A stretch of 64,000 nt of DNA, taken from NCBI RefSeq assembly GCF_026130175.1, contig NZ_JAIGNI010000149.1, forward strand, positions 1-64,000. Reading direction: 5' to 3'. Shown one piece after another: positions 12,793 to 17,888 of the stretch. This DNA comes from Lyngbya sp. CCAP 1446/10. GTDB taxonomy: Bacteria > Cyanobacteriota > Cyanobacteriia > Cyanobacteriales > Microcoleaceae. How positions within the stretch are numbered: the first letter of the stretch is position 1; each line of letters begins with the position of its first letter. A program made the translations under genes and the position numbers. The notes beneath the pieces were generated by a model. The model had not been told where the DNA came from. It searched no databases and saw only the letters and a program-made list of their open reading frames with translations.

Positions 12793-15456
12793 ATGTCCTT
12801 CGTTGGTTTGCACATTCACAGCGATTACAGCCTCCTAGATGGCGCTTCTCAGCTACAGCCGCTCGCCGATCGGGCGGTGGAATTGGGGATGCCCGCGATC
12901 GCCCTTACAGACCACGGAGTGATGTATGGTGCGATCGAACTCATCAAAGTTTGCCGAAATAAAAATATCAAGCCCATAATTGGCAATGAAATGTATGTCG
13001 TCAACGGCGACATCGAAGTCAAAGTTCGAGGTAGAAGAAAATACCATCAAGTTGTCTTAGCAAAAAATACCCAAGGCTATAAAAACCTCGTCAAACTCAC
13101 CACAATTTCCCACTTAAAGGGAATGCCAGAACGAGGTATTTTTGCCCGCCCCTGTATCAACAAAGACCTACTAAAACAATACTCCGAAGGTTTAATTGTC
13201 ACCAGCGCTTGTTTGGGTGGCGAAGTTCCCCAAATGATTCTGCAAAACAAGCTAGATGAAGCCCGCGAAGTTGCCAAATGGTATAAAGAAGTATTTGGGG
13301 ATGACTACTATATAGAAATTCAAGACCACGGTTCCCAAGAAGACCGGATGGTGAATGTGGAAATAGTCAAAATTGCCCGCGAATTCAATATAAAAATAAT
13401 CGCCACTAACGATTCTCACTATATTTCTTGCAACGACGTAGAAGCCCACGATGCTTTGCTTTGTATCAACACCAACAAACTGATTGAAGAAGATAAGCGG
13501 ATGCGCTACAGCGGTACTGAATATCTTAAGTCCGCTGACGAGATGGCGCAACTGTTTCGAGACCATTTGGACGACGAAACCATCAAAGAGGCGATCGAAA
13601 CTACCCTAGAAGTAGCAAACAAAGTATCAAGATACGAGCTAACAGGTGAAGCTCGGATTCCCACAATTCCAATTCCCCCAGAACATACCGCCGATACCTA
13701 TGTAGAAGAAATATCTTGGTTAGGACTATTAGAACGCCTAAAAAGCCGTACCAGAAACGAAATCCCCCCAGTCTACAAACAAAGACTAGAATATGAGCTA
13801 AAAATGATTCAGCAGATGGGTTTCTCTGAATATTTTTTAGTGGTTTGGGACTACATGAAATATGCTAGAGACAACAATATTCCTGTCGGGCCAGGACGTG
13901 GTTCTGCGGCAGGTTCTTTAGTTGCTTACGTCCTCAACATTACCAACATAGACCCCGTACACCACGGATTGCTATTCGAGAGATTTCTAAATCCCGAACG
14001 TAAATCTATGCCAGATATCGATAGTGATTTTTGCATAGAAAGACGCGACGATATGATTAAATATGTTACGGAAAAATATGGTACAGACCGCGTAGCACAA
14101 ATTATTACTTTCAACAGAATGACATCAAAAGCTGTCTTGAAAGATGTTGCCAGAGTTTTAGGTATTCCCTACAAAAAAGCCGACGAAATGGCAAAAATGA
14201 TTCCCGTGTCGCGGGGGAAACCGGAAAAACTCAAAGTGATGATTTCCAATGGAACACCGGCACAGGAATTTAAAGATAACTACGAAAATACAATTTGTAT
14301 CAATGCAGAAACTGGCACCGAAGTTCCAGTGCGTCAGTGGATTGACATGGCAATTCGCATTGAAGGAACTAACAAAACCTATGGCGTTCATGCCGCCGGT
14401 GTGGTGATTTCTTCCCAACCCCTTGATGAAATTGTACCATTACAAAAGAATGACAATGGTGCAGTGATTACCCAATATTTCATGGAAGATTTGGAATTTT
14501 TGGGGTTGCTGAAGATGGATTTTCTGGGACTTAAAAATTTAACAACTCTCCAAAAAACAGTCGAGTATGTTAAGCACACGCAAAATAAAACTATCGATGC
14601 CGAAGCTTTACCTTCTGACATAGAACGCAGAGCTCAAGAGACATTTACTCGAATCAAAAAGTTGCCTGAAGATGTAGAAAAGACTTATCAACTATTAGAA
14701 AAAGGAGATTTAGAAGGTATTTTTCAGCTAGAATCTTCTGGGATGCTGGATGTAGTAAAAAAAATTAAACCTTCCTGTCTGGATGATATTTCTTCTATTC
14801 TGGCGCTTTATCGTCCCGGCCCGCTGGATGCTGGTTTGATTCCACAATTCATCGATCGCAAACACGGTAGAGAAGTGGTTAAATATGACCATCCGCTGTT
14901 AGAACCAATTTTAAAAGAGACCTATGGAACGCTTTGTTTCCAAGAGCAAATTATGCGGATGGCTCAAGATTTGGCGGGCTATTCTTTAGGTCAAGCTGAC
15001 TTGCTGCGTCGTGCAATGGGCAAGAAGAAGGCTGATGAAATGCAGAAGCAAAAGGAAACATTTATTGATGGGGCAACTAAGAATGGTGTCACTCAAAGAA
15101 TTGCCGAAGAGTTGTTCGGGCAAATGCTACAATTCGCAGAATATTGCTTGAGCTATGACACGAAGATATTGACTGTGGAATATGGGCCGATGGCTATTGG
15201 CAAAATCGTTGAGGAAGAAATTGAATGTACTGTTTATAGTGTTGATAGTAATGGTCATATTTATACACAGTCAATTGCACAGTGGCATCGCCGGGGGCAG
15301 CAGGAGGTCTTTGAGTATTGTCTGGAAGATGGCTCGACAATTCGCGCCACAAAAGATCACAAATTTATGACTGCTGACGGCCAAATGCTGCCCATTGACG
15401 AAATCTTTGAAAAAGGATTAGAATTAAAACAAATCAACTCTAGCTCAGATATATAA
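12793..15456 (+). CDS. dnaE-N: DNA polymerase III alpha subunit, N-part with IntN
   Basis: 887 residues: a 784-residue extein followed by a 103-residue intein N-half. The extein has the PHP domain ([16 protein letters not shown]), the polymerase core with catalytic aspartates in [13 protein letters not shown] and [16 protein letters not shown], and stops at LQFAEY, the standard cyanobacterial DnaE insertion point. The next residue, Cys785, starts the intein ([14 protein letters not shown]). The product must be trans-spliced to DnaE-C to give a working replicative polymerase. The TAA at 15454-15456 is followed after one base by the ATG of the endonuclease gene. Confidence 0.97.
15145..15453 (+). 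other. DnaE intein N-fragment (IntN, 103 aa)
   Basis: Begins with Cys1 at 15145-15147 (TGC). Block A is [14 protein letters not shown] and block B is [14 protein letters not shown], with the expected TxxH. It closely resembles the well-known split DnaE IntN halves over its whole length and ends in a divergent [10 protein letters not shown] tail. Confidence 0.96.
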
Positions 15457-15457
15457 A

Positions 15458-16237
15458 ATGTATCTCGACTATAGAAAACTAAAATCCGAACACAAGCAAC
15501 AAATCATTTCTGCTTTTAATCATGGTATGGAGTATCGAGAAATTCCTAACTACCTTGGTGTGAGCGAAAGAGCGGTTTCAAGAGTTTTAAAAGAAGCTGA
15601 CATTAATACTAAGCGGCGAAACCGCTATACTTTAAATGAAAGCTATTTTGATGTAATTGACTCTCAAGCTAAAGCCTATTTATTAGGATTGATAGCTGCT
15701 GATGGCTGCGCTACTCACACTAATTATGTAGCTTTTGAATCTATTGACAAAGAACTCACAGAAATGCTCAGCGTAGAGCTACAATATTCTGGTGAGATTA
15801 GAGTTGTTCAGCCTCAAAATTATGCTCCTCACTACCGAATAAATTTTTCTTCTGAAAAACTGGCAAGCTCTTTACACGCCTACGGCATAATACCAGGAAG
15901 GACTTTTTCAGGAGTTACTTATTTCCCTAACTCACAATATTTAGCATCTTATGTGTTAGGCTACTTTGACGGTGACGGTTGTGCTTATGCAAACAAAGGT
16001 AGAAGTGGCGGTTTAGTCTGCATCGTCGGTTCCTTTGAATTTGCCTGCGAACTAGCAAGGCACTTAGGAATGGGTTCTGTACAAGAACATCAATTCAAAA
16101 AAGTTTATTACTGGAGAATATTTAGTCGAAAAAATATACAAGCGTTCTATGATTTTGTTTATCAGTATCCCAGATTGGGGCTGCAACGAAAAAAAACTAA
16201 AATTGAAGATATTCTCAGGAGTTACAAACATGGTTAA
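15458..16237 (+). CDS. LAGLIDADG homing endonuclease between intein halves
   Basis: 259 residues. N-terminal helix-turn-helix (about 20-46: MEYREIPNYLGVSERAVSRVL). Two LAGLIDADG motifs follow, LLGLIAADGC (about 69-78) and VLGYFDGDGC (about 164-173), each keeping the catalytic aspartate, so it looks intact. Such enzymes cut an intein-free allele and drive copying of the element. It has no clear Shine-Dalgarno; its ATG starts one base after the dnaE-N stop, so translation by reinitiation is likely. Its last codons overlap the start of dnaE-C by 8 bp. It sits exactly where the endonuclease domain lies in a full-length intein. Confidence 0.93.
   Translation: MYLDYRKLKSEHKQQIISAFNHGMEYREIPNYLGVSERAVSRVLKEADINTKRRNRYTLNESYFDVIDSQAKAYLLGLIAADGCATHTNYVAFESIDKELTEMLSVELQYSGEIRVVQPQNYAPHYRINFSSEKLASSLHAYGIIPGRTFSGVTYFPNSQYLASYVLGYFDGDGCAYANKGRSGGLVCIVGSFEFACELARHLGMGSVQEHQFKKVYYWRIFSRKNIQAFYDFVYQYPRLGLQRKKTKIEDILRSYKHG
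16217..16221 (+). promoter_or_regulatory. Ribosome binding site for dnaE-C inside the endonuclease gene
   Basis: AGGAG, eight bases before the ATG at 16230. This decides the IntC start over the longer open frame from 16149. Confidence 0.85.
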
Positions 16238-16337
16238 AATTATTAGTCGAAAATCACTAGGAACTCAAGAAGTATATGATATTGGGGTTGAACGAAATCA
16301 TAATTTTACACTAGAAAATAGTCTGGTGGCATCTAAC
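16230..16337 (+). other. DnaE intein C-fragment (IntC, 36 aa)
   Basis: 36 codons starting MVKIISRKSLGTQEVYDIG. Block F is YDIGVERNHNF and block G is SLVASN with the terminal Asn, followed by Cys+1. All residues needed for trans-splicing are present. Confidence 0.96.
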
Positions 16338-17888
16338 TGTTTTAATAAATCCCATTCAATGGCCTATGCCTATATCACTTATCAAACTGCTTATTTAAAG
16401 GCCAATTTTCCGGTAGAATACATGGCTGCACTTCTGACTGCTAACAGAGGCGACCAGGAGAAGGTACAGAGATATATTGCTAATTGTCTCAAGCTGAAAA
16501 TTGACGTTGAGCCACCTGATATTAATGGCTCTGAACTTACTTTTACGCCGCTTCCTATAGAGATGACAAAGGCCGAAAAACATAAAATTTTGTTTGGGAT
16601 TTCGGCGGTTAAAAATGTGGGTGAGGGGGCTATTGAAAATATTTTGGAGGCGCGCAAAGAAGGGGGTAATTTTAAGTCACTGCCGGATTTGTGCGATCGC
16701 GTAAATCTACATTCTGTCAACCGCCGCGCCCTAGAAGCCTTGATTCAGTGTGGTGCTTTTGACAAAATCGATCCCAACCGCCAGCAATTGGTAAACGACC
16801 TCGAAGGGGTGATGAAATGGGCCCAAGACCGCAAGAAAGATCGAGAAAGTGGTCAAGGTAATCTGTTTGACTTGTTAGGTGGGAATAGCTTTGACAAGTC
16901 GGTGAATAAATTTGAGTCTGCACCAAAATCAAAGACTGTCAAAAATTTTGATACACAGGAAAAATTGCGTTTAGAAAAAGAATTGCTTGGTTTTTATGTA
17001 TCAGAACATCCCCTGAAGTTTTTGCTGCAATCTAATCAAGATCCAGATGTTGTGACTCTGGCACAGTTAGCCGATAAAAAGGGTAAAGTATCGGTTATTG
17101 TCATGCTCAATGCTATCAAACTGGTAGTGACGAAAAAAGGCGACGCGATGGCAATTTTGCAATTAGAAGATTTGACACATCAAATCAAAGCTGTTGTGTT
17201 TCCCAAGGCTTACGAACAACTCAAACCTTACATTGTAGAAAATGCGATTTTGCTAATTGGTGGGAAAATAGAGAAAGATGGCGAGGAAATTCAGATAATT
17301 GTAGATACTGCAAAGCCTGTAGAAAAACCAGAGGTTACAGAGGAAATTGAGGTAGCCCAACCGGAAATACAAAATTCTTGGGCGGCGCCATCCCAAACAC
17401 AAAATTCTTGGGTGGCGCAACCGGAAAGACAAAATTATTTGGCGGCGGAACCGGTCAACTTTGCCCGATCGACAAAACCAGTGCAAGTTCTAGAAATGGT
17501 CATTGTCAAGCTTACACCGCCGCAGGTGCAAGATACGAAAAATCTCAATTCCCTCAAAGCTATTTTGCAAGAACTTTCCAATCGTGGAGAGGATGCTAGC
17601 GTTTCTGTCGGGGGAATCGTTGTCGGTGAATATTCCTGTCAACCGCTTCGCATCAACCGTCAGTTGTGGATACAAGATGGCGAGGGCGCTGTTAGCCGTC
17701 TCAAGTCGGCGGGATTTGATGCTTGGGTTTTCCCTCTCGACAGTCGCGGGGATGCTGCAATATTTCGAGAAGTGCGATCGCAACTTAACATACATTCTTG
17801 GGCCAGTCGTTTACTTGACGCGGATGTCGATCGCATTTCCCAGTATCTCAACTATCTCGCCCAACTAAACAAACGCCCGCCAAACTAA
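16230..17888 (+). CDS. dnaE-C: DNA polymerase III alpha subunit, IntC with C-part
   Basis: 552 residues from the ATG at 16230. Residues 1-36 are the intein C-half; Cys37 (TGT at 16338) opens the C-extein CFNKSHSMAYAYITYQTAYL, the normal partner of the dnaE-N extein. The C-extein (516 residues) carries the helix-hairpin-helix region and an OB-fold (VSVIVMLNAIKLVVTKKGDA). A low-complexity linker with repeated QNSW words lies at about 400-430 and makes this part longer than in model cyanobacteria. Start choice rests on the AGGAG site and on exact match to IntC length. Confidence 0.96.
   Translation: MVKIISRKSLGTQEVYDIGVERNHNFTLENSLVASNCFNKSHSMAYAYITYQTAYLKANFPVEYMAALLTANRGDQEKVQRYIANCLKLKIDVEPPDINGSELTFTPLPIEMTKAEKHKILFGISAVKNVGEGAIENILEARKEGGNFKSLPDLCDRVNLHSVNRRALEALIQCGAFDKIDPNRQQLVNDLEGVMKWAQDRKKDRESGQGNLFDLLGGNSFDKSVNKFESAPKSKTVKNFDTQEKLRLEKELLGFYVSEHPLKFLLQSNQDPDVVTLAQLADKKGKVSVIVMLNAIKLVVTKKGDAMAILQLEDLTHQIKAVVFPKAYEQLKPYIVENAILLIGGKIEKDGEEIQIIVDTAKPVEKPEVTEEIEVAQPEIQNSWAAPSQTQNSWVAQPERQNYLAAEPVNFARSTKPVQVLEMVIVKLTPPQVQDTKNLNSLKAILQELSNRGEDASVSVGGIVVGEYSCQPLRINRQLWIQDGEGAVSRLKSAGFDAWVFPLDSRGDAAIFREVRSQLNIHSWASRLLDADVDRISQYLNYLAQLNKRPPN

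What the first reader, a model, noticed from the sequence alone, without database searches (positions are those of the whole stretch)
15145..16340. DnaE split intein still in place, with a homing endonuclease gene between the halves
The sequence shows IntN (103 codons) ending dnaE-N, a two-motif LAGLIDADG endonuclease ORF, and IntC (36 codons) starting dnaE-C, all contiguous within 1.2 kb. In well-studied cyanobacteria (Synechocystis, Nostoc) dnaE-N and dnaE-C are far apart and the intein has lost its endonuclease. This looks like the missing intermediate: a full intein broken into three genes without relocation, or a later regain of an endonuclease. It could show how the split DnaE inteins arose.
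Basis: partly seen in the sequence, partly recalled or inferred. Interest (0 to 1): 0.92.

Follow-up and report, generated by a model that had tools for sequence, protein, structure and literature searches.

The report
Mobile DnaE split intein with endonuclease
In this cyanobacterium the DNA-polymerase gene is cut in two by a split intein that still carries its own homing-endonuclease gene between the halves, and related genomes show this three-piece cassette moving between species, decaying, re-fusing and, in one lineage, coming apart into distant genes.

Summary
dnaE-N+IntN (12793-15456), a 259-aa LAGLIDADG endonuclease gene (15458-16237) and IntC+dnaE-C (16230-17888) lie head to tail in three frames. 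It is not a misassembly: the same order occurs in other Microcoleus-type genomes, in 8 of 8 loci checked in four further families of the order, and in one genome of another order.

Best reading: a mobile three-gene cassette (IntN-HEG-IntC), like the phage "fractured genes". The HEG is under purifying selection (median dN/dS 0.15) with invariant motif Asp residues. 28 of 60 family genomes show no intein at the site. Cassette and extein trees conflict strongly, with sharp divergence steps at the cassette edges in some pairs.

The family also holds a decay series: HEG with stop, with insertion, internally deleted, end relic, gone. One genome looks re-fused from the split state. Three genomes of one related genus have separated halves with a HEG 3' relic still before dnaE-C, so there a HEG-bearing cassette preceded separation. 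No relic was found before 40 dnaE-C genes of other families, so the origin of the classical dispersed DnaE inteins remains an inference. Splicing and cleavage are inferred, not shown.

The parts
12793..15456 (+). dnaE-N: N-terminal part of DNA polymerase III alpha (784 aa extein) plus IntN
   Evidence: NF007079 1680.7 bits; PHP, DNA_pol3_alpha, finger domains
15145..15453 (+). IntN, 103 aa, begins Cys1; T69/H72 (block B, residue roles recalled) present
   Evidence: TIGR01445 7.6e-15; DnaE intein structures, best E 1e-50
15454..15460 (+). junction TAA-A-ATG between dnaE-N stop and HEG start
   Evidence: TATAAAATG in 11 of 11 genus loci with a HEG printed
15458..16237 (+). HEG: 259-aa HTH + double-LAGLIDADG homing endonuclease
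   Evidence: AF2 pLDDT 91; I-Tsp061I, E-DreI, TliVMA and PI-PfuI intein endonucleases
15485..15595 (+). N-terminal three-helix HTH-like region (residues 10-46)
   Evidence: helices 10-21, 26-33, 37-46; HTH phrogs
15674..15706 (+). first LAGLIDADG motif AYLLGLIAADG, Asp82 invariant in 37 sequences (catalytic role recalled)
15947..15979 (+). second LAGLIDADG motif SYVLGYFDGDG, Asp173 invariant in 37 sequences (catalytic role recalled)
16217..16221 (+). AGGAG, likely Shine-Dalgarno of dnaE-C, inside the HEG 3' end
   Evidence: sequence; a similar stretch is kept in the HEG-less G387
16230..16337 (+). IntC, 36 aa, ends Asn36 before Cys+1; start overlaps HEG stop by 8 nt
   Evidence: (TIGR01443 7.7e-7)
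16230..17888 (+). IntC + dnaE-C (552 aa)
   Evidence: NF005616 592.5 bits, below its cut-off of 646

Best explanation
The stretch is a mobile split-intein cassette, IntN-HEG-IntC, inserted in dnaE. Inferred working: the three genes are read as one unit with coupled starts; the two DnaE halves are joined by IntN/IntC trans-splicing; the HEG product cuts intein-less dnaE at or near the insertion site and repair copies the 1.2-kb cassette in. Shown by comparison: the cassette has histories other than those of the exteins around it, within the genus and between families. When the HEG decays, the halves stay adjacent, re-fuse, or come apart into distant genes, as in genus g3 of the same family.
For: Same order in 4 of 386 phylum genomes, the window's own included, and 8 of 8 HEG loci of other families. 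HEG match in 23 of 388 order genomes; 21 of these were seen at this site, G570 and G486 were not checked. dN/dS of HEG 0.148 median over 36 pairs of 9 genus genomes; D82 and D173 invariant in 37 sequences; confident LAGLIDADG model. 28 of 60 family genomes show no IntN/IntC at the site; the rpoB tree needs 15 changes, at least 13 forced by starred branches. Cassette against extein conflict: AU p 7.8e-5 or lower in the genus (groups chosen after seeing the trees); across families p 8.4e-9 and 2.7e-34. Edges: G000-G398 third-position difference 4% in flanks, 14-23% in cassette; G000-G417 29% against 7-18%. Decay and relic series.
Against: No cleavage, splicing or expression data. Trees rest on single genes and mostly draft or MAG genomes. 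Recombination within dnaE could mimic some transfers. Loss by recombination with intein-less alleles must contribute to the patchiness. HEG and intein halves do not fully agree: f17 groups with f29/G388/G420 in the HEG tree (96/90) but with the window's genus in the IntN+IntC tree (80/89), and IntN and HEG differ in divergence in some pairs (G000-G411). Not every pair shows steps at the edges (e.g. G404-G398). The intein-less label is still somewhat clustered on the rpoB tree (20 of 500 shuffles as low), as plain inheritance within clades would give. No HEG relic before 40 dnaE-C genes outside the family.
Confidence: 0.8

Rival explanations
1. Ancient, vertically inherited three-gene state (a true relic of the first split) with many independent losses, no present mobility.
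For: Same place and order in five families of the order and one genome of another order, so the association may be old.
Against: Cassette and extein trees conflict at genus and family level; divergence steps lie at the cassette edges in several pairs.
Confidence: 0.12
2. A cis mini-intein was the older state and a free-standing HEG split it by insertion (the Dassa model, recalled); the fused G157/G425 forms are pre-insertion survivors.
For: In 40 virus records HEG relatives are not by a detected intein; G157 and G425 have a clean fused junction with no visible intergenic remnant.
Against: G157/G425 lie among HEG-bearing and relic-bearing relatives; G402 carries, by eye, a translated remnant of split-state intergenic DNA, so re-fusion does happen. 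Compatible with the best explanation as its first step.
Confidence: 0.35
3. The endonuclease is a passive or domesticated insert without role in spread of the intein.
For: Several copies are broken and the halves persist without it.
Against: Purifying selection, invariant motif acids, found only at this site in the 21 of 23 genomes checked, histories other than the exteins'.
Confidence: 0.07
4. Assembly artefact.
For: Draft genome of 171 contigs.
Against: Same order in independent assemblies including a single-contig genome (G286) and a 7.5-Mb contig (G397).
Confidence: 0.01

Closest known systems
'Fractured genes' with split inteins and a free-standing endonuclease gene between (Dassa et al. 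2009; content recalled, paper not held)
   Same: Host gene broken by a split intein, separate endonuclease gene in the gap; proposed route to split inteins.
   Different: Recalled as mainly phage metagenomic loci with a Vsr-like endonuclease family in about half; here bacterial chromosomes, DnaE, LAGLIDADG with HTH, and a visible decay and separation series.
Cyanobacterial split DnaE inteins (Ssp, Npu; Wu 1998, Caspi 2003, recalled)
   Same: Same insertion site, IntN/IntC lengths, sequence and split point.
   Different: Classical cases are dispersed and endonuclease-free, and were described as fixed (Caspi 2003 abstract, recalled); here adjacent, HEG-bearing and patchy within one genus.
LAGLIDADG homing endonucleases (I-Tsp061I, PI-PfuI and TliVMA intein endonucleases)
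   Same: Two motifs; fold (TM-scores to the query of about 0.4-0.6).
   Different: 10-22% identity in the listed structure alignments; extra N-terminal HTH; separate gene inside a split intein.
Collaborative homing of introns with free-standing endonucleases (PMC2988022, passages)
   Same: Free-standing HEG joined with a splicing element lacking one.
   Different: There group I introns; here a split intein.
Desulfonema ishimotonii adjacent split dnaE with a DnaE intein (PMC6390638, passages)
   Same: Two adjacent dnaE genes in different frames and a DnaE intein related to cyanobacterial ones.
   Different: The 415-aa intein lies within one of the two genes; the paper says it is not the cyanobacterial split-intein case.

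Membership tests
Naturally split DnaE intein | IntN at C-end of dnaE-N and IntC at N-end of a separate dnaE-C, at the known DnaE site | tested here: met
Naturally split DnaE intein | Splicing residues Cys1, block B T/H, Asn36, Cys+1 | tested here: met
   read from the sequence; residue roles recalled
Naturally split DnaE intein | Trans-splicing to whole DnaE | not testable with these tools
   needs protein work
LAGLIDADG homing endonuclease | Two motifs with acidic catalytic residues | tested here: met
   D82, D173 invariant in 37 sequences
LAGLIDADG homing endonuclease | LAGLIDADG fold | tested here: met
   (78 PDB matches at E 0.001 or lower; of the 50 listed the best are LAGLIDADG enzymes); sequence profile hit 2dch E 1.7e-5
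LAGLIDADG homing endonuclease | Cuts a cognate intein-less site | not testable with these tools
   biochemistry needed
Fractured gene (split intein + free-standing endonuclease gene) | Endonuclease gene as own ORF between the split-intein halves | tested here: met
Fractured gene (split intein + free-standing endonuclease gene) | Endonuclease of free-standing type | tested here: inconclusive
   HTH, own start/stop; of 40 virus records with a relative 6 have an intein N-terminus match, none beside the relative by coordinates (40 of 80 loci scanned, split inteins could be missed). Points to yes.
Conventional full-length intein | Endonuclease domain in frame with both splicing parts in one ORF | tested here: not met
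   three different frames with stops

The most novel reading that the evidence does not exclude
All dispersed split DnaE inteins of cyanobacteria descend from this mobile three-gene cassette: the HEG split the intein, homing spread it, and HEG decay with rearrangements inside the dead HEG left the two halves in distant places, so that a selfish-gene life cycle produced the best-known split gene of bacteria, caught here at every step.
Probability: 0.4. Interest if true: 0.92.

Novelty: new variant of a known kind. Interest (0 to 1): 0.76.

Why it matters
Split DnaE inteins are standard tools of protein trans-splicing, yet how they arose is unclear. Here one bacterial family shows intein-less, HEG-bearing split, HEG-decayed, fused and separated states side by side, with relics linking them. 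It makes the origin of split inteins testable, suggests that a DnaE split intein can still be mobile, cautions against using the DnaE intein as a once-gained phylogenetic marker (as in PMC5029880, passages), and offers natural HEG-free, fused and split variants for splicing work.

Tried and rejected
Dual-frame coding was considered because the genome search listed open frames of 1564-2109 aa through the HEG. Rejected: that column reads through stops; the translations stop at aa 103-111.

The first structure job (12 close sequences) gave a poor model (pLDDT 50.5); 37 diverse sequences gave 91.0.

HEG relics were sought by profile upstream of 40 dnaE-C genes of other families (up to 600 nt each, chosen by me for spread among the 103 IntN carriers) and in 10 further adjacent or split loci: only the three known relics scored (E 7.3e-14 to 2.5e-12); all else had E 0.34 or higher. 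The universal-origin claim is therefore not supported directly.

Virus relatives beside inteins: none seen in the records of 40 of the 80 loci.

Eight literature searches, read as listings, and passages of eleven papers showed me no description of a HEG between DnaE halves. Caspi 2003 and Dassa 2009 are not held, so earlier mention cannot be excluded.
Full report
OBSERVATION. The window is part of contig C59 of a 6.75-Mb draft genome; record titles of near relatives name Microcoleus and Microcoleaceae. dnaE-N with IntN (12793-15456), the HEG (15458-16237) and IntC with dnaE-C (16230-17888) are contiguous, in three frames. IntN has 103 codons and IntC 36, as reported. The HEG has no second match in this genome at E 0.001.

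NOT AN ARTEFACT. An even draw of 386 genomes of the phylum gave the HEG in 4, the window's own included, each between dnaE halves: three of one genus and one (G286) of another family and order. A draw of 388 genomes of the order gave 23 with a HEG match. The 8 complete or nearly complete ones outside the window's family (families f50, f3, f17, f57, two each) all have dnaE-N, IntN, HEG, IntC, dnaE-C in this order. Two further ones (G570, G486) have the HEG in two pieces and were not followed.

STATE OF THE SITE ELSEWHERE. IntN is in 103 of 386 genomes at E 1e-10. IntC places were obtained for all of these. Read by hand from the coordinates: HEG between in 4 (G000, G039, G352, G286); fused in G157; 0.84-8.2 kb apart in the order N-C on one strand without this HEG in 7 (G011, G215, G207, G027, G002, G066, G298); dnaE-C about 14 kb before dnaE-N on one strand in 4 (G385, G089, G179, G247). 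The other 87 have the halves on different contigs, on opposite strands or more than 90 kb apart.

THE FAMILY. Of 61 family genomes, 60 had a match (G399, 74% complete, had none). My assignment: HEG frame intact and in place 10 (one, G388, at a contig edge with IntC at the end of another contig); HEG broken in place 3 (stop in G411 and G420, 2.5-kb insertion with transposase-like frames in G417); HEG remnants between adjacent halves 3 (G418, G431 with both ends left and the middle gone; G396 with the last 10-13 codons); adjacent without recognisable HEG 7; one open frame (fused) 3 (G157, G425, G402); separated with HEG 3' relic 3 (G255, G423, G429); on separate contigs or incomplete 3 (G435, G320, G389); no IntN or IntC at the site 28. 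For 11 of these 28 the joined exteins are displayed; the others are judged from the match pattern and the row counts. Several of the 28 carry other inteins in dnaE. Two named records outside this count, UBA9251 and Microseira wollei, have an intact and a frame-broken HEG.

MOBILITY. On an rpoB tree of 57 of the 61 genomes (G352, G401, G426 and G399 left out: no or partial rpoB, or no dnaE) the intein-less label needs 15 changes, at least 13 forced by starred branches; shuffled labels give 19.3 on average and 20 of 500 are as low. On dnaE-N (63 rows) it is 19, shuffled 20.3. Within the genus, HEG data reject groups of dnaE-N and the reverse: p-AU 7.8e-5, 3.5e-62, 8.2e-49, 1.8e-8. These groups were chosen after seeing the trees. 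Across families HEG data reject the window's family as one clade (p 2.7e-34), and extein data reject G286 (f29) with G388 and G420 (p 8.4e-9), a group that HEG (100/98) and, more weakly, IntN+IntC (89/86) show. Against full co-movement: f17 sits with that group in the HEG tree (96/90) but with the window's genus in the IntN+IntC tree (80/89). One HEG test, four family genomes held together, was not rejected (p 0.29). Third-position differences change abruptly at the cassette edges in both directions in some of nine chosen pairs, not in all. In 15 of 45 pairs of ten genus genomes HEG dS and flank dS differ more than twofold. The MAG G414 holds an intein-bearing and an intein-less dnaE contig, 97% alike over 71 nt up to the site and 95% over 225 nt after it: two alleles, perhaps two strains.

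THE ENDONUCLEASE. Its median dN/dS is 0.148 (36 pairs), against 0.061 for dnaE-N (28 pairs) and 0.128 for the intein parts (36 pairs). D82 and D173 are invariant in 37 sequences. The model (pLDDT 91.0) matches I-Tsp061I, E-DreI and intein endonucleases, with TM-scores of about 0.4-0.6. Relatives outside this locus are distant: below 60% in all 147 phage and 9 plasmid records, 23-33% in the 80 virus loci kept. In the 40 virus records scanned, 6 have an intein N-terminal match, none beside the HEG relative by coordinates. I infer a free-standing HEG type that joined the intein.

DIRECTION OF CHANGE. Three genomes of genus g3 (Planktothrix-like is my guess; no call names it) with separated halves keep about 30-40 codons of the HEG end directly before IntC; one relic has a stop. 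G255 and G423 are sisters, so this is at most two events. There a HEG-bearing contiguous state came first. The fused G402 keeps in frame, by eye, DNA like the intergenic leader of the split G401 and G412, so I read it as a re-fusion. For G157 and G425 the direction is open. Upstream of 40 dnaE-C genes of other families no relic was found; there the link to this cassette is inference.

MECHANISM. Shown: the arrangement, conservation, conflict of histories, decay and relics. Inferred: coupled translation, trans-splicing, cutting of intein-less dnaE, homing by repair. Loss must also occur, probably by recombination with intein-less dnaE.

COMPARISON WITH WHAT IS KNOWN. The arrangement matches the 'fractured genes' of Dassa et al. 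2009 (title seen in reference lists; content recalled). PMC5029880 (passages) treats the DnaE intein as gained once with convergent losses; PMC2823733 (passages) treats split DnaE as a clade marker; PMC9403480 (passages) reports one Thermosynechococcus genome lacking it; PMC6390638 (passages) reports adjacent split dnaE genes and a DnaE intein in a Desulfonema, of another kind. The passages that I saw do not discuss transfer within a genus. I saw no description of a HEG between DnaE halves in eight searches, but key papers are not held. Verdict: a new variant of a known kind, with an unusually complete set of evolutionary states.

Noticed in passing
L023:2435-4177 (genome G193): Three extra partial IntN copies (about residues 54-98) downstream of the full IntN within 3 kb; unexplained.
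   Followed up: no
L067:5434-7876 (genome G421): Intein-less dnaE followed by a second partial dnaE piece that spans the same site; may be left from replacement of an intein-bearing allele.
   Followed up: partly
L025 and L070 (genome G414, a MAG): Both an intein+HEG and an intein-less dnaE contig in one bin.
   Followed up: partly
L009:4100-4754, L032, L055-L062 (genomes G157, G420, G418 and others): Other intein-like pieces further upstream in dnaE in several family genomes.
   Followed up: no
L011, L013-L015 (family f2 genomes): DnaE halves on one strand 1.7-8.2 kb apart, with kinase-like frames (by eye) on the other strand between them in the two inspected (G207, G002).
   Followed up: partly
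L008:5277-5951 (genome G011): Another ORF (Uma2-like by eye, untested) between the halves instead of the HEG.
   Followed up: no
L035:5196-7703 (M. vaginatus HSN003, G417): HEG interrupted by 2.5 kb with two transposase-like frames (IS630- and IS66-like by eye).
   Followed up: partly
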